From a bacterium (GTDB lineage Bacteria > Patescibacteriota > Andersenbacteria > UBA10190), in the NCBI GenBank assembly GCA_027624555.1, contig JAQBWN010000003.1:1-50163 (forward strand): a DNA stretch of 50,163 nt, written 5' to 3'. The translations under genes and the position numbers were made by a program. This document shows, piece after piece, positions 2,228 through 45,975 of this stretch. The stretch's first letter is position 1. Each line of letters starts with the position of its first letter. Under the pieces are notes generated by a model. That model was not told where the DNA came from, did no database searches, and saw only the letters and a list, made by a program, of their open reading frames with translations.

Positions 2228-2614
2228 TTACCAAATAGCGCAAATAAGTTCTCCGCCTATTCCTTTTCCTCGTGCCCTTTTTTCATTCATTAAGCCCTCT
2301 GGAGTTGAAACTATAATCATTCCAGATTCTTGTCTTGAATAGGGCAAAAAGTCTGCACCTGCATATACGCGTCGACCCGGCTTACTAATTCTCTGCGAAC
2401 CACTTATTGCTCCTTTACCAGCTTCAGAATACGCAAGAGAAACAATGAGCTTTGCCTTAGGACTTTCTTGTAATCGGATATCGCCAATCAATTTCTGCTC
2501 TTTCATAAACGTAAGCAAGCGTTCCGTAAAGCGCGAGAAAGGAACTGCAACCCGCTTTTTTCCTACGCGTTGTCCGTTGAGCAAAATAGTTAATGTGTTT
2601 CCTACAGTATCCAT
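2228..2614 (-). CDS. rpsH: 30S ribosomal protein S8
   Basis: Internal start MDTVGNTLTILLNGQRVGKKRVAVPFSR preferred over the ORF-track start at 2695, which overlaps rpsN; C-terminus STPEGLMNEKRARGKGIGGELICAIW typical of S8. Confidence 0.9.
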   Translation of the reverse strand: MDTVGNTLTILLNGQRVGKKRVAVPFSRFTERLLTFMKEQKLIGDIRLQESPKAKLIVSLAYSEAGKGAISGSQRISKPGRRVYAGADFLPYSRQESGMIIVSTPEGLMNEKRARGKGIGGELICAIW

Positions 2615-2618
2615 AGAA

Positions 2619-2804
2619 TTACCAAGATGACTTTCTAATACCTGGAATGTGCGCTTTTTCAGCACTTTCTCTAAAGCAAATACGGCACATTCCAAACGCG
2701 CGCATATAGCCTCGAGGCCGTCCGCAGAGTTTGCATCTTGACCTAGCCCGTGTTGAGAACTTAGGTTCTCTCATGCTTTTTGCGATTTGTGATGTTTTTG
2801 CCAT
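2619..2804 (-). CDS. rpsN: 30S ribosomal protein S14 type Z (zinc-binding)
   Basis: 61 aa with [23 protein letters not shown]. Confidence 0.96.
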
Positions 2805-2832
2805 ACAAGTGTAATTGAGAATACGCTACTTC

Positions 2833-3375
2833 CTATTCTTCTTCAAGTTCTTCTGTTCGAAACGGGAATCCGAGTGCCCGAAACATCTGCTCTGCAGTTT
2901 CATTATTTTTTGCCGTTGTTACAAAAGTAATACCAACGCCAAAGATAATATCAGTCTTGTCTGCACGAATTTCCGGAAATGCCAGATGTTCCGCAAGCCC
3001 AATGCTTACGTTTCCTTGACCATCTAATACAGACAAAGATAGTCCTCTAAAGTCACGGATACGGGGGAGTACAGTGCCCACAAATCGAGCTAAAAAGTCT
3101 TCCATGCGCTTGCCTCGAAGCGTTACACTATACCCAACCAAATTTCCTTCACGAACATTAAAACCCGCAATAGATTTTTTCGCTCGTCGTTCGCTTGGCT
3201 TTTGTCCAGTAATTGCAGACAAATCCCTTTGCACCGCCTCAACATACGTTTTATTGTCTCTGTTTTTACCAACACCGACGGAAACAATAGCTTTTGTAAC
3301 GCGAGGGACAGCATGAATATTTTTTATTTGAAGAGACTGGGCAAGTCTTTTAGTTGTAGGAGTAATAATAGGCAT
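2833..3375 (-). CDS. rplE: 50S ribosomal protein L5
   Basis: KAIVSVGVGKNRDNK...RRAKKSIAGFNVREGNLVGYSVTLRGKRM...RDFRGLS. Confidence 0.96.
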   Translation of the reverse strand: MPIITPTTKRLAQSLQIKNIHAVPRVTKAIVSVGVGKNRDNKTYVEAVQRDLSAITGQKPSERRAKKSIAGFNVREGNLVGYSVTLRGKRMEDFLARFVGTVLPRIRDFRGLSLSVLDGQGNVSIGLAEHLAFPEIRADKTDIIFGVGITFVTTAKNNETAEQMFRALGFPFRTEELEEE

Positions 3376-3385
3376 AAGTCAAAAG

Positions 3386-3706
3386 TTATTCGATAATTGC
3401 CTTACAATGCTTACACACACGAGCTCGCACGCCATTTTCTCTCGTTATTCCAACTCGTGTTCCTTTTTTGCATTGAGTGCAAATGAGTTGAACATTCGCA
3501 ATACGAATTGGAGCAGCAATGCTTACACGTTGGCCTTTTTGACCACCGCTTTTTGCCTTTACGTGTTTCTTTACCATATTTAAACCTTCAACTACTACTG
3601 TTGAAGCTTTCGGCAAAACCGCTAAAACTTTGCCTTTTTTTTGTGCATCCTTACCACGAAGAATTCGCACACTGTCGCCTCGTTTAATTTTTAGAAGAGT
3701 CGTCAT
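3386..3706 (-). CDS. rplX: 50S ribosomal protein L24
   Basis: KIKRGDSVRILRGKDAQKKGKVLAVLPK; C-terminal CxxC...CxxC. Confidence 0.95.
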   Translation of the reverse strand: MTTLLKIKRGDSVRILRGKDAQKKGKVLAVLPKASTVVVEGLNMVKKHVKAKSGGQKGQRVSIAAPIRIANVQLICTQCKKGTRVGITRENGVRARVCKHCKAIIE

Positions 3707-9856: not shown

Positions 9857-9898
9857 TAAGCTAATGCAGCTAACGAAGCTATAAGCTAATGAAGCTAG
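9857..9898. repeat. AGCT-phased ~9-bp repeat array (single arm) at rpsJ 3' end
   Basis: agctaatgcagctaacgaagctataagctaatgaagct. Confidence 0.85.
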
Positions 9899-13016: not shown

Positions 13017-13487
13017 CTACCGCGCTTTTTCCAGTTTTGTTATTCTCTCACCATGGTTATATACTTCAAATTCCAAGTTCTTAACTTTGCGCAACTCAGT
13101 CGTGAGAGAGCTTACTGAATCGGTATTAACTTCAATTTTCTTTTCTAGCCGCTCATTCGTTTCCCGCTGTTCTTTTCGAAATTCATCAAACTCGTATCTG
13201 AGTCCACCAACGTTTTTTTCGATACCGCTAACTTGTTCTCGCAGACCACCAACTTGTTTCTCAAGTCCATTAGCTTGTACCTGTAAACCACCAACTTGTT
13301 TTTCTAGTCCACCAACCCGTTTTGTTAAGCCCCCAACTTGTGTTTTAACACCTTTTATTTCCTTCTTCTGCTCCTGCAACTCTTTAAACATTTTACCAAA
13401 AAAATCTTTGATCATTTCCATGCCTTCAGTCCATTGAGATTGGGTTACGAACGAGTCAGTTGCAGAAGTTTTTTTATTCTTTGCCAT
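13017..13487 (-). CDS. Coiled-coil protein with V-G-G-L heptad repeats
   Basis: Repeated (VGGLxxQ)n; TATACT 8 nt before ATG at 13487. Confidence 0.7.
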   Translation of the reverse strand: MAKNKKTSATDSFVTQSQWTEGMEMIKDFFGKMFKELQEQKKEIKGVKTQVGGLTKRVGGLEKQVGGLQVQANGLEKQVGGLREQVSGIEKNVGGLRYEFDEFRKEQRETNERLEKKIEVNTDSVSSLTTELRKVKNLEFEVYNHGERITKLEKAR

Positions 13488-13525
13488 GTACAAAAAGTAT
13501 ACTTCTTTTTTCAGAGGCTCGCACT

Positions 13526-14011: not shown

Positions 14012-14145
14012 TTTCCCCTCTTTACGAAGGAGGGGTTAGGGGAGGTTAGGTGAGAACGCGAACGCGCTTCTCCCACACCAGCCCTCACCCACCCGCCTGT
14101 TGGCGAGGTGCCCTCTCCCCCATATGGGTAGAGGGGAGCGACGTT
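14012..14145. repeat. G/C-rich palindromic repeats (CCCCTC...GAGGGG; CTCTCCCCCATATGGGTAGAGGGG)
   Basis: Two hairpins; same type as the insert in rplD (8599-8645). Confidence 0.55.
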
Positions 14146-14151
14146 TCACCA

Positions 14152-14197
14152 AAAGCTAATGAAGCTAAGGCAGCTAACGAAGCTAGTGAAGCTAATT
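14152..14197. repeat. AGCT-phased repeat array (single arm) at fusA 3' end
   Basis: agctaatgaagctaaggcagctaacgaagctagtgaagctaa. Confidence 0.85.
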
Positions 14198-29347: not shown

Positions 29348-30817
29348 ATGAGCGACAAAAATAGTGAGAATTTAAACGCTGAAAAGCGAGCGCTTGCACA
29401 AGTACGTCAAAGGCATAATATTGCCATGCCACCACGAAAAAAACATTCCACACGTTTCCGCGCGCTACGATTATTATCCCTGCTTATCTTCATCGGCGGC
29501 CTTTTTATCGCTGGCATTTTTGGATACAAAATTCTTGCGGCAGGAAATAATATTAGTACGGTAAAACAATCAATCCTCGGGCAATTATCAGACCTTTTAT
29601 TCAAATCCGGCAATGAACTACAAGGAGAACATGAGGGTCAAATAAACATTCTCCTTATTGCTGTAGGCGGAGAAGGACACTCTGGCGAAAACCTCGCGGA
29701 CACCATTATGGTTGCATCTATCCAAAAAGACACAAATAAAGTTTCCCTCCTCTCTATCCCACGTGACTTCTATGTCAAGGTTCCCGGACAAGAATTTTAC
29801 TCAAAAATTAATGCAGTACACGCGTATGGAGAATCACAAAAGAAAAACAATGGTCCAGAACTTCTCGAAAAAAAGGTTGAAGAAATAACAGGTCTATCTA
29901 TTCACTACTTCGCGCGAATTGATTTTACTGCATTTAAAAAAATAGTAGAGGCAGTGGGCGGAGTAAACGTCCATATACAAAACGGTTTTACTGATTATTT
30001 CCACAAAATAGCTTTTCCTACTGGTACAGAAACGATGAACGGAGATAGAGCTCTTGCCTATGTACGGGCACGATACGTAGAAGGCTCAGAAGGAGGAGAC
30101 TTTAAGCGTGCGTCACGTCAACAACAGATGTTAGGAGCCATGCTACATAAGGTATTTTCCGTAAATACTGCGCTAGACTTTTCTGCAATAAACGGAATTA
30201 TAAATTCCATTTCTGAAGACATTCGCACGAGTATGCAGACTTGGGAAATGAAACGTTTTTTTGAAATTGCACGTCAACTAGATACCAATTCAATTAAATC
30301 TGTAGTCCTTACCACAGGCCCACGGGGAGTACTTGTAGGAGATACGGTAGTGCTGGGCGGAGAACCAGCATCCATACTAAAACCACGGACAGGCGACTAT
30401 TCAGAAATTCAAGCACTTGCAAAAAATATGTTCTCATCTGAAGTTGGCAAAATAATAAACGATACAGCAACAGAAAATTCATCTCCGAAGCCAAGTTTGT
30501 TGCCAAGCCCAACACCAAAAAGCGAACAAGCTGAAAAACCAACTCTTGAAGTAAGGAACGGCACAGCGGTAAACGGACTTGCTAAAAAAATTACTGATGA
30601 GTTTACAAAAAAGGGGTACAAAATACTGGCAACTGGAAATGCATCGGCCAAAAATATCAAAAAAACAAAGGTCTACGCGCCAAAAGTTACCCATGCAGAT
30701 GATGCGCAAGCAATAGCCTCAGCACTTAAAGCAACGTCTGAAACGGACTTCCCTGCTGCGGAAGCAAAAACAACTGCAGATATTTTAATAGTGCTAGGAG
30801 CAGACGCGGCTAATTAG
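29348..30817 (+). CDS. LytR-CpsA-Psr family protein with LytR_C domain
   Basis: INILLIAVGGEGHSGENLADTIMVASIQKDTNKVSLLSIPRDFYVKVPG...ALAYVRARY; C-terminal LEVRNGTAVNGLAKK. Confidence 0.93.
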   Translation: MSDKNSENLNAEKRALAQVRQRHNIAMPPRKKHSTRFRALRLLSLLIFIGGLFIAGIFGYKILAAGNNISTVKQSILGQLSDLLFKSGNELQGEHEGQINILLIAVGGEGHSGENLADTIMVASIQKDTNKVSLLSIPRDFYVKVPGQEFYSKINAVHAYGESQKKNNGPELLEKKVEEITGLSIHYFARIDFTAFKKIVEAVGGVNVHIQNGFTDYFHKIAFPTGTETMNGDRALAYVRARYVEGSEGGDFKRASRQQQMLGAMLHKVFSVNTALDFSAINGIINSISEDIRTSMQTWEMKRFFEIARQLDTNSIKSVVLTTGPRGVLVGDTVVLGGEPASILKPRTGDYSEIQALAKNMFSSEVGKIINDTATENSSPKPSLLPSPTPKSEQAEKPTLEVRNGTAVNGLAKKITDEFTKKGYKILATGNASAKNIKKTKVYAPKVTHADDAQAIASALKATSETDFPAAEAKTTADILIVLGADAAN

Positions 30818-30943
30818 CTTATAGCTGAACTGCGAGCTGCGTTAGCTTCTTTAGCTTCACTAGCTTCGTTAGCTTACGCGATTACGAGGGCGAAAAAAGC
30901 TAATGCAGCTAACGAAGCTACAAGCTAACGAAGCTCGTTAGGG
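30810..30943. repeat. AGCT-phased repeat, two opposed arms between convergent genes
   Basis: agctgcgttagcttctttagcttcactagcttcgttagctt ... aagctaatgcagctaacgaagctacaagctaacgaagct. Confidence 0.88.
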
Positions 30944-36367: not shown

Positions 36368-38557
36368 ATGAAACATCTCGTCATCGTAGAATCCCCTGCA
36401 AAAGCAAAGACTATCCAAAAATATCTTGGAAAAAATTTTTCCGTGAAAAGTAGTTACGGCCATGTGCGCGATCTTCCAAAATCCAAAATCGGTGTTGACG
36501 TTAAAAAAGGTTTTGAACCCAGCTATATAATTCCAGACAAAGCAAAAGCACGCATTGCAGATTTAAAAGCAGCCGCAAAGAAAGCAGATATTGTCTATTT
36601 CGCAACTGACGAAGATAGAGAGGGAGAAGCAATTGCCTGGCATTTATTACAAGTACTCGGCACAGCGCCAGAAAAAGCCAAGCGTATTACATTCACCGAA
36701 ATTACAAAAACTGCCATTGCTAGGGCAGTTGAAAACCCAAGAGAAATAGATCAGAACTTAGTAGATGCCCAACAAGCACGCCGCGTGTTAGACAGATTAG
36801 TGGGCTATGAACTCTCTCCTCTTCTTTGGAATAAAGTACGGCGTGGACTTTCAGCGGGCAGGGTACAATCTGTTGCAGTTAGGTTAATAGTTGAAAAGGA
36901 AGAAGAAATTAAAAAATTTGAAGCGCAAGAATACTGGAGCGTTGACGCACTTCTGGCGAAAGCGGGTAATCAGTTTAATGCCAGCTTAAAAGCAATAGAC
37001 GGCAAAGTTATCGGAAAACTCGGGCTCGCCAACAAAGAAAGTGTCCAAGATATTTTGAAAAACTTAGACGGCGCAACGTATACGATTTCCAATATCACAA
37101 AAAAAGAGCGTAAGCGCACTGCTCCCGCTCCATTTACCACCAGCACACTACAACAAGCCGCATTTAACCAACTTGGATTTTCAAGCAAACGAACCATGAT
37201 GATTGCACAGGGGCTGTATGAAAATGGATTTATCACGTATATGCGTACTGACTCGTTAAACCTGTCTCAAGATGCCGTGCAAGCAGCTACCAGGGCCATT
37301 ACAAGTATGTTTGGGAAAGAATACGCACTCGATGCTCCGAGGGTATTTACGAAGAAATCCAAAAATGCACAAGAAGCTCATGAAGCAATACGCCCGAGCG
37401 ACCCGGAAAAATCTCCGGAAAGCCTCGCACCTGAACTCGATACAACACAATTAAAACTGTATCGGCTAATTTGGCAACGCATGGTTGCATCCCAAATGGC
37501 AGATGCAAAGCTAAATCAAACAGCTGTAGATATTACAGCGAAAAATTATATATTCCGCGCTAGTGGCACTTCCGTTATTTTCGATGGCTTCGTAAAAGCA
37601 CTCGGAGAAAAAGCGGCGTTCCAAGAAACCGTACTACCAGACCTCACAGAGCAAGATGTATTAGATCTTATAAAACTGCAACACGAACAACACTTTACAC
37701 AAGCGCCTGCAAGATATTCTGAAGCAACACTCGTGAAAGCACTCGAAGAACACGGTATTGGACGACCAAGCACATATGCTCCAACAATAGACGTTATTCA
37801 AAAACGAGAGTATGTGGTGAAAAATGATGAGAAACGGTTAGCTCCAACAGAAATTGGAACACTGGTAAATAGCGTTCTTACCGAACATTTCCCAAATATT
37901 GTAGACATCGATTTTACCGCAAACATGGAAAGCAGTCTGGATGATGTAGCGTCTGGAGAAAAAGCATGGCAACCGGTTATGAAAGAATTTTACGATCCGT
38001 TTCATGCGCTTATAAAAACAAAAGATAAAGAACTAAAAAAATCAGATATTACAGAAGAAGCAACAAATGAAACGTGCCCAAAATGTTCCAGTCCGCTTAT
38101 TATAAAACTCGGTAGGTTCGGCAAATTTAAAGCGTGCAGTAAATACCCAGATTGCAAATTCACAGAGCCGCTTGGAGATGAAAAGAAAATGGAAGAAGAA
38201 CATTCAGGGCAAATATGTCCGGATTGCGGAAAGCCACTCGTAGTAAAGCGCGGACGTTTTGGTGCATTTCTTGGCTGTTCCGGCTACCCCGATTGTAAGC
38301 ATATAACTCCAATTGTAAAAGAGACTGGAGTAGATTGTATTGCATGCAATAAAGGAAAAATTATTGAGAAAAAATCCCGCAGAGGAAAAATGTTTTATGC
38401 ATGTAACCAGTACCCCGATTGCAAAAATGCATACTGGAGCAAACCAACGGGAGAAAAATGCTCGCAGTGTGAAAGCATGTTAGTCTATGGCGCAAAAAAT
38501 ACAATAAGATGCAGCGCCAAAGGCTGTGGGTTTAAGAAAGACAACGAGGAAGAGTAG
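36368..38557 (+). CDS. topA: DNA topoisomerase I with C-terminal zinc ribbons
   Basis: KHLVIVESPAKAKTIQKYLGKNFSVKSSYGHVRDLPKSKIGVD...three C-x2-C zinc ribbons. Confidence 0.97.
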   Translation: MKHLVIVESPAKAKTIQKYLGKNFSVKSSYGHVRDLPKSKIGVDVKKGFEPSYIIPDKAKARIADLKAAAKKADIVYFATDEDREGEAIAWHLLQVLGTAPEKAKRITFTEITKTAIARAVENPREIDQNLVDAQQARRVLDRLVGYELSPLLWNKVRRGLSAGRVQSVAVRLIVEKEEEIKKFEAQEYWSVDALLAKAGNQFNASLKAIDGKVIGKLGLANKESVQDILKNLDGATYTISNITKKERKRTAPAPFTTSTLQQAAFNQLGFSSKRTMMIAQGLYENGFITYMRTDSLNLSQDAVQAATRAITSMFGKEYALDAPRVFTKKSKNAQEAHEAIRPSDPEKSPESLAPELDTTQLKLYRLIWQRMVASQMADAKLNQTAVDITAKNYIFRASGTSVIFDGFVKALGEKAAFQETVLPDLTEQDVLDLIKLQHEQHFTQAPARYSEATLVKALEEHGIGRPSTYAPTIDVIQKREYVVKNDEKRLAPTEIGTLVNSVLTEHFPNIVDIDFTANMESSLDDVASGEKAWQPVMKEFYDPFHALIKTKDKELKKSDITEEATNETCPKCSSPLIIKLGRFGKFKACSKYPDCKFTEPLGDEKKMEEEHSGQICPDCGKPLVVKRGRFGAFLGCSGYPDCKHITPIVKETGVDCIACNKGKIIEKKSRRGKMFYACNQYPDCKNAYWSKPTGEKCSQCESMLVYGAKNTIRCSAKGCGFKKDNEEE

Positions 38558-38664
38558 CTTCTTCCAGCTTCATTAGCTTCACTAGCTGCTTTAGCTTCGT
38601 TAGCTTTTGTTCGAACGCATTCGTAAGCTAATACAGCTAACGAAGCTATAAGCTAATGAAGCTC
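38557..38664. repeat. AGCT-phased repeat, two opposed arms between topA and parB
   Basis: agcttcattagcttcactagctgctttagcttcgttagctt ... aagctaatacagctaacgaagctataagctaatgaagct. Confidence 0.88.
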
Positions 38665-38665
38665 G

Positions 38666-40786: not shown

Positions 40787-41149
40787 CTATCGTCGCATCA
40801 TGCGAATTTGGACTTCTGTATCCGAAATTCGTTTTTCGTGATTTTTCAATATTATAGGATGGTCCTTGGTTTCTTTTGCACGAGCATCTATTGATTTCAC
40901 AACGCTCAAAATGGCCTCTAGAATTTTTCGATGAATTGCCATTTCTTCTTCCGCATTATCAAGCCTTACCTTAACACCAACTATCTCGCCTTTAACACCA
41001 ACTATTTCGTCTTTGACGCCAACTATTTCGTCTTTAACCTCTTCTACTGCGCCCTCAACCTCGTCTATCCTCGATGACAAATGCCCTCCAAGCAATTCTA
41101 GGTCATGTTGAGTTGCTGGCTCATTGCTATTGGTTGCTTTCTTTTTCAT
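40787..41149 (-). CDS. Coiled-coil protein with DEIVGVK heptad repeats
   Basis: VKDEIVGVKDEIVGVKGEIVGVKVRL; TATAAT 6 nt before ATG. Confidence 0.7.
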   Translation of the reverse strand: MKKKATNSNEPATQHDLELLGGHLSSRIDEVEGAVEEVKDEIVGVKDEIVGVKGEIVGVKVRLDNAEEEMAIHRKILEAILSVVKSIDARAKETKDHPIILKNHEKRISDTEVQIRMMRR

Positions 41150-43272: not shown

Positions 43273-43368
43273 AGCTGCATTAGCTTCGTTAGCTTCACTA
43301 GCTTCGTTAGCTTACGCGACGAATAAAAAGCTAATGCAGCTAACGAAGCTATAAGCTAATGAAGCTAG
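43273..43368. repeat. AGCT-phased repeat, two opposed arms
   Basis: agctgcattagcttcgttagcttcactagcttcgttagctta ... aagctaatgcagctaacgaagctataagctaatgaagctag. Confidence 0.9.
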
Positions 43369-45875: not shown

Positions 45876-45975
45876 GTAGCTGCATTAGCTTCGTTAGCTT
45901 CACTAGCTTCTTTAGCTTAAACGACTATTCCCGCAAGCTAATGCAGCTAACGAAGCTGCAAGCTAATGAAGCTAG
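45876..45975. repeat. AGCT-phased repeat, two opposed arms
   Basis: agctgcattagcttcgttagcttcactagcttctttagctta ... aagctaatgcagctaacgaagctgcaagctaatgaagctag. Confidence 0.9.

What the first reader, a model, noticed from the sequence alone, without database searches (positions are those of the whole stretch)
30810..30943. AGCT-phased ~9-bp repeat arrays attached to gene 3' ends, one arm per gene
Seen: arrays of AGCTTCGTTAGCTTCATTAGCTGCATTAGC occur at 9857-9898, 14152-14197, 30810-30943, 38557-38664, 43273-43368 and 45876-45975. At all four convergent junctions that carry them there are two opposed arms, each reading out of its gene. The two loci downstream of a minus gene that faces no convergent partner (rpsJ, fusA) have a single arm. 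AGCT recurs about every 9 bp, and one frame of each strand is full of TAG/TAA. Inference: a dispersed element used as a bidirectional transcription or mRNA 3'-end boundary, since the two-arm junctions have no canonical U-tract terminator.
Basis: partly seen in the sequence, partly recalled or inferred. Interest (0 to 1): 0.72.

Follow-up and report, generated by a model that had tools for sequence, protein, structure and literature searches.

The report
IVP-linked inverted repeat arrays, dispersed
The AGCT arrays are the two ends of a small, apparently mobile genetic element of a tiny bacterium, related to the "intervening sequences" known from ribosomal RNA genes but living between (and sometimes inside) protein genes; similar elements, each with its own repeat sequence, surround most of the IVP genes examined in this bacterial phylum.

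Summary
The arrays are real and far beyond chance: 45 matches of AGCTN5AGCTN5AGCT in the 788-kb Patescibacteria genome versus 0 for the reversed control. Opposed arms are not one-per-gene units. They are the two unequal ends of one element: an AGCT 9,9,9,9 arm, a short loop, then an AGCT 9,9,7,9 arm.

The genome's single 23S_rRNA_IVP (four-helix-bundle) gene is bracketed by these arms. Its 41-nt 5' arm recurs with 1-3 mismatches in five of the six window arrays (best in shuffled DNA: 18). The window copies are therefore ORF-less relatives of an IVP-bearing element.

This generalises. Of 86 distinct IVP genes, nearly all from Patescibacteria, 74% are flanked by arrays with a 7-9 bp period that are reverse complements of each other, against 5.5-6% of controls (p~1e-35). 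The repeat unit differs between copies. Same-genus relatives lack the arrays at all orthologous window junctions examined. In this genome 18 of 22 loci abut a stop codon and four are in-frame insertions in proteins (TsaD, PrmC and others).

Best reading: an IVS-like selfish element and its short derivatives, with mRNA hairpins likely trimmed by RNase III (inferred). The boundary role is partly supported. Mobility machinery is unknown.

The parts
30816..30874 (+). left-type arm after lytR-like gene (AGCT spacings 7,12,9,9,9,9)
   Evidence: lytR stop TAG 30815-30817 overlaps the first unit
30897..30937 (+). right-type arm (9,9,7,9) at the pth 3' end; 2 mismatches to the IVP-gene 5' arm
   Evidence: pth reading frame stops inside the arm (30918)
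38556..38605 (+). left-type arm overlapping the topA stop
38625..38665 (+). right-type arm at the parB 3' end; 3 mismatches to the IVP 5' arm
43273..43312 (+). left-type arm 4 bp after the stop of the HhH-GPD glycosylase gene
43328..43368 (+). right-type arm at the MFS gene 3' end; 1 mismatch to the IVP 5' arm
45878..45917 (+). left-type arm 5 bp after the UDP-glucose dehydrogenase-family stop
45935..45975 (+). right-type arm containing the stop of the LamG/fn3 surface-protein gene; 3 mismatches to the IVP 5' arm
9858..9898 (+). solo right-type arm between the rpsJ stop and the rpsJ terminator; 1 mismatch to the IVP 5' arm
14154..14193 (-). solo left-type arm (9,9,9,9) 3 bp after the fusA stop

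Best explanation
The arrays are the terminal arms of a small, apparently mobile element of the intervening-sequence (IVS) type, and the window copies are its ORF-less short forms. The full form is about 500 nt: a 5' arm of phased short repeats, a 23S_rRNA_IVP / four-helix-bundle gene, and a 3' arm of the same repeats in inverted orientation starting at the IVP stop codon. SHOWN by sequence: the IVP-arm linkage within this genome and across Patescibacteria; homology between window arms and the IVP arm; the short-loop versus IVP-loop forms; absence at orthologous sites in same-genus genomes; placement at stop codons and in frame inside genes. INFERRED: when transcribed as part of host mRNA the arms pair into a ~40-bp imperfect duplex that RNase III-like activity cuts, so an insertion between genes is nearly harmless. 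IVP binds the arms or their RNA and helps the element copy to new sites, with short forms moved in trans or left as relics. Any terminator or 3'-end effect at convergent junctions is secondary.
For: 1) The only PF05635 gene in the genome (C6:7094-7411, E=4e-39) is bracketed by the arrays. 2) Its 41-nt 5' arm recurs at 10 other G000 loci with 0-5 mismatches, five of them in the window with 1-3; shuffled best 18. 3) Across 86 IVP genes, the upstream flank matches the reverse complement of the downstream flank (score >=16) in 74%, versus 6.0% for mismatched pairs and 5.5% for control ORFs, p~1e-35. Arm length median 40 nt; the 3' arm starts at the stop codon (median -1); periods mainly 7-9. The unit differs between copies while the two arms of a copy agree. 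4) AGCT-type elements in other Patescibacteria: 41 with loop 17-67 nt, 3 with loop 365-408 nt holding IVP. 5) Same-genus relatives lack the arrays at every orthologous window junction compared. 6) Four in-frame insertions; the TsaD insertion is absent in G002. 7) The four two-arm copies fold with z -3.4 to -6.3 on both strands. 8) Known IVSs have this anatomy: inverted ends, an S23p/IVP ORF in the loop, RNase III excision (PMC4990558). 9) A genome with 11 IVP genes (G033) has 22 period-7/8 inverted hairpins without IVP in 240 kb, 0 in shuffles.
Against: No transposase, target-site duplication or observed movement was shown. Absence in sisters could in part be loss, and each comparison rests on 1-3 genomes. 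About a quarter of IVP genes have no clear inverted flanks. The RNA-strand signal is weak (G-U-type versus A-C-type mismatches 113:84, p=0.046). The sense orientation of IVP elements (51:3) barely exceeds that of ordinary operon genes (p=0.046). Single arms have no stable fold. RNase III cleavage was not tested, nor its gene sought. In Coxiella the IVP ORF seems not to be expressed (PMC4990558).
Confidence: 0.68

Rival explanations
1. The arrays are host-maintained bidirectional 3'-end boundaries (terminators or mRNA stabilisers) at convergent junctions; IVP linkage is incidental.
For: Convergent gaps enriched, p=7e-4; long stems on both strands; no strong U-tract terminator at the four junctions; at the UDP-glucose dehydrogenase 3' end relative G002 has a terminator hairpin where the window has the array.
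Against: The arms bracket the only IVP gene and are near-identical to its arm; rpsJ keeps a separate terminator; four copies are inside proteins; same-genus relatives do without.
Confidence: 0.15
2. They behave as in-frame palindromic selfish repeats like Rickettsia palindromic elements, spread by an unrelated activity, with IVP merely hitch-hiking between two arms.
For: In-frame copies in TsaD, PrmC, a WecG/TagA-like protein and an O-antigen-ligase-like protein; 9-bp period with two open frames per strand; a second palindrome family also makes in-frame inserts.
Against: IVP genes with unrelated repeat units still have matched inverted arms in 74% of cases, so arm formation follows the IVP gene, not the AGCT unit.
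Confidence: 0.12
3. REP/BIME/REPIN-type repeats mobilised by a Y1 (RAYT) transposase.
For: Extragenic, paired inverted arms near gene 3' ends.
Against: No Y1_Tnp in this 99.5% complete genome; tandem phased units are not a REP feature.
Confidence: 0.03
4. Assembly artefact or purely local microsatellite slippage.
For: Arrays differ in unit number between related loci (L080/L084).
Against: The same two-arm architecture in many independently assembled genomes; inverted pairing and IVP linkage.
Confidence: 0.02

Closest known systems
23S rRNA intervening sequences (IVS) with an S23p/IVP ORF (Coxiella, Leptospira; PMC4990558)
   Same: IVP-family ORF in the loop, inverted complementary ends (28-bp stem in Coxiella, ~40 nt here), total size ~430-500 nt, no transposase.
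   Different: Located between and inside protein genes, not in rRNA helices; arms are phased 7-9 bp repeat arrays; numerous ORF-less short copies; many repeat-unit subfamilies.
rRNA insertion sequences of CPR bacteria (PMC11270868)
   Same: Same bacterial group; some carry 23S_rRNA_IVP ORFs.
   Different: Those lie in 16S/23S genes and mostly encode LAGLIDADG/GIY-YIG homing endonucleases; that paper's main text does not mention repeats, inverted ends or hairpins.
MITEs / Correia elements / ERIC (PMC10969869)
   Same: Short non-coding inverted-repeat derivatives in 3' regions; Correia RNA is cut by RNase III.
   Different: MITEs derive from DNA transposons with terminal inverted repeats and target-site duplications; here the apparent parent element carries IVP and no transposase.
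Rickettsia palindromic elements
   Same: Palindromic repeats inserted in frame in unrelated housekeeping genes.
   Different: No IVP link known; RPE units are ~150 bp, not 9-bp phased arms.
REP/REPIN-RAYT (PMC3116915)
   Same: Dispersed paired inverted repeats in extragenic space.
   Different: Mobilised by a Y1 transposase, absent here.

Membership tests
IVS with IVP ORF | IVP/S23p ORF inside the element | tested here: met
   Met for the C6 copy; the window copies lack the ORF
IVS with IVP ORF | complementary ends forming a stem | tested here: met
IVS with IVP ORF | insertion in 23S (or 16S) rRNA | tested here: not met
   array loci lie between or within protein-coding genes
IVS with IVP ORF | excision by RNase III | not testable with these tools
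   needs RNA work
REP/REPIN-RAYT | Y1 (RAYT) transposase in the genome | tested here: not met
   PF01797 no match
MITE | terminal inverted repeats and no coding capacity | tested here: met
   two-arm window copies
MITE | target-site duplication / parent transposase | tested here: inconclusive
   no TSD recognised at compared junctions; sisters are too diverged to fix the exact boundaries; the apparent parent has IVP only
Intrinsic terminator | GC-rich hairpin followed by a U-tract | tested here: not met
   only weak matches overlap the arrays
Rickettsia palindromic element | in-frame insertion in protein genes | tested here: met
   (works like; homology to RPEs not tested)

The most novel reading that the evidence does not exclude
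IVP genes of Patescibacteria (and at least some Verrucomicrobiota) are the core of a widespread class of transposase-less mobile elements living in operons. Each builds its own pair of complementary phased arms, perhaps by fold-back copying of RNA or DNA with a borrowed reverse transcriptase, and seeds the genome with short hairpins that are trimmed from mRNA.
Probability: 0.3. Interest if true: 0.87.

Novelty: new variant of a known kind. Interest (0 to 1): 0.74.

Why it matters
IVP/S23p is a widespread protein family without a known function, and how rRNA intervening sequences move has been open since about 1990. A genome-encoded IVP bracketed by arms that recur at gene ends gives the family candidate nucleic-acid targets and a mobility assay. 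The matched-but-diverging arms pose a sharp question: how do the two ends of each copy keep the same repeat while copies differ? It also explains a class of intergenic hairpins and in-frame protein inserts in Patescibacteria.

Tried and rejected
REP/RAYT origin (no Y1_Tnp). Viral origin (no match in viral contigs). Plain intrinsic terminators. A strong RNA-strand signature: G-U bias only 113:84 and sense-orientation bias only p=0.046 over operon genes, so neither is used as proof. The own-genome reverse transcriptase looks like part of a diversity-generating retroelement with no link to the arms beyond an array ~3 kb away. Literature searches for IVP plus repeats or inverted repeats found no report of these arms, within an open-access library only.

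Full report
OBSERVATION. In the 788-kb, 38-contig Patescibacteria genome that holds the window, AGCTN5AGCTN5AGCT occurs 45 times per strand against 0 for the reversed pattern, and AGCTN5AGCT 103 against 12. The two arms at a junction differ: left arm typically 9,9,9,9; right arm 9,9,7,9. The four two-arm copies are thus one oriented element, left arm - short loop - right arm. The rpsJ array is a solo right-type arm and the fusA array a solo left-type arm on the minus strand.

WHAT IT IS. One scan of 85,462 species genomes with TAGCTTCRYTAGCTTCRYTAGCT gave 86 loci. Most are Patescibacteria of many lineages: Moran-, Yanofsky-, Peregrini-, Kerfeld-, Uhr-, Wildermuth-, Peri-, Vogel- and Taylorbacteria. 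Their context shows the layout (AGCTTCRTT)n-AGCTT.TTAGG - short loop - CCTAA.AAGCTAAYGAAGCT, and some loci bracket a four-helix-bundle gene. In the window's genome there is exactly one PF05635 (23S_rRNA_IVP) gene, C6:7094-7411, E=3.8e-39. It lies between two AGCT arms, just downstream of recA. Its solved relatives are 2gsc (XCC0516) and 2rld. The 41-nt arm in front of it recurs at ten other loci of the genome with 0-5 mismatches. Five are in the window: 9858 (1 mismatch), 30897 (2), 38625 (3), 43328 (1), 45935 (3). The best match in shuffled window DNA has 18 mismatches. In AGCT-type loci of other genomes, 41 of 49 two-arm elements have loops of 17-67 nt, while three have loops of 365-408 nt holding the IVP gene.

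GENERALISATION. PF05635 occurs in 88 of 146 sampled genomes of the phylum, up to 11 copies each. Printing the flanks showed that most IVP genes, not only the AGCT type, sit between inverted arrays of short phased repeats. The unit varies from copy to copy: GTAGTTTGTAGTGGGTAG, TATGAATTATGAATCG, TAGGAAATAGGAG, GGTACAGGGATCAGG and so on. Statistic: 86 distinct IVP genes, best local match between 160 bp upstream and the reverse complement of 160 bp downstream. Score >=16 in 74% of true pairs, 6.0% of upstream/downstream pairs drawn from different loci, 5.5% of 597 control ORFs (Mann-Whitney p 2e-35 against either). Arms are about 40 nt; the 3' arm begins at the IVP stop codon. Best internal period is 7-9 (or 14) with autocorrelation 0.62 versus 0.43 shuffled, p 3e-12. 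Six of seven IVP genes seen in two Verrucomicrobiota-type genomes score 16-30 too. Genome G033 (11 IVP genes) has 22 inverted period-7/8 hairpins without IVP in 240 kb, none in shuffled DNA. So the AGCT arrays are one subfamily of a widespread class.

LOCATION AND TURNOVER. Same-genus genomes G001-G003 (fusA 87-90% identical) lack the arrays at every orthologous window junction that could be compared: lytR-pth, topA-parB, rpsJ, fusA, the glycosylase 3' end and the UDP-glucose dehydrogenase 3' end. Of 22 array loci in the window's genome, 18 lie within about 11 bp of a stop codon of an ORF-based gene call and four lie inside reading frames in frame: TsaD (REANEANAANEAISS), PrmC (LNKLTKLVKLTQL), a WecG/TagA-like protein and an O-antigen-ligase-like protein. 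Protein names for these four are from recognisable motifs, not from a family search. The TsaD insert is absent from G002, and G001 has a different insert in the same loop. A 9-bp period is three codons and two of three frames are open on each strand, so such inserts are tolerated. IVP elements lie between codirectional genes, the arm edge a median of 3 bp inside the stop of the upstream gene.

MECHANISM. Shown: IVP-arm linkage, arm homology, two element forms, lineage-specific presence, stem-forming potential (z -3.4 to -6.3 on both strands for two-arm copies, near 0 for solo arms). Inferred: the arms pair in mRNA and are cut by RNase III as in known IVSs (PMC4990558); IVP acts on the arms to spread the element; short copies are non-autonomous or relics. 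The matched arms within a copy, with different units between copies, suggest that one arm is templated on the other (fold-back copying or conversion) or that pairing is under selection. The strand-specific G-U test supports RNA only weakly (113:84, p=0.046). The sense orientation of IVP elements is only slightly beyond that of operon genes.

The 3'-end and convergent-junction association is real (4 of 6 convergent gaps versus 2 of 48 others, p=7e-4). At the UDP-glucose dehydrogenase junction the array stands where relative G002 has a terminator. But rpsJ keeps a canonical terminator behind its array, some copies are inside proteins, and the arms belong together as one element. A boundary effect is best seen as a possible consequence.

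KNOWN SYSTEMS. IVP ORFs are known in rRNA IVSs (PMC4990558), in CPR rRNA insertions (PMC11270868) and, unexplained, inside cas operons (PMC3936711). No paper found describes phased inverted arms around IVP genes outside rRNA. It works like an IVS, but the defining rRNA location is not met; it works like a MITE, but no parent transposase is seen. Hence new variant of a known kind, with a more radical reading open.

Noticed in passing
window 14040-14150; L107, L108, L111, L112: A second palindromic repeat family (CCCCTCTACCCATATGGGGGAGAGGG...CCTCGCCCGCAGGCGGGT) sits next to several AGCT arrays and is also inserted in frame, e.g. in YchF (L111, SPHPNPLPHMGRGE) and apparently in TsaD of G001.
   Followed up: partly
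L224:1195-3704 (G000:C31): Likely diversity-generating retroelement: variable repeat 1666-1795 in a 201-aa protein, template repeat 2134-2257 with A-biased differences, reverse transcriptase ORF 2592-3704; the only RVT_1 hit of the genome. No separate accessory (avd) ORF recognised.
   Followed up: partly
G033:C1:1-240000 (L234-L245): 22 inverted period-7/8 hairpins without an IVP gene in 240 kb (AAAAGTTAAAAGTG.., AATTTTCAATTTCTAATT.., TAGTTTGTAGTGAGTAG..); none in shuffled sequence.
   Followed up: partly
window 13200-13316: Imperfect 42-bp tandem repeat inside ORF 13017-13493 (minus strand).
   Followed up: no
window 40971-41038: 21-bp tandem repeat, 3.2 copies, inside ORF 40787-41149 (minus strand).
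   Followed up: no
L080 and L084: Orthologous AGCT arrays in two related genomes differ in unit number and order, so the arms expand and contract.
   Followed up: no
L038, L044: In non-Patescibacteria (Methylobacter, Rhizobiaceae MAG) the pattern forms long uniform TAGCTTCAT runs without an opposed arm, possibly coding NEA-type repeats.
   Followed up: no
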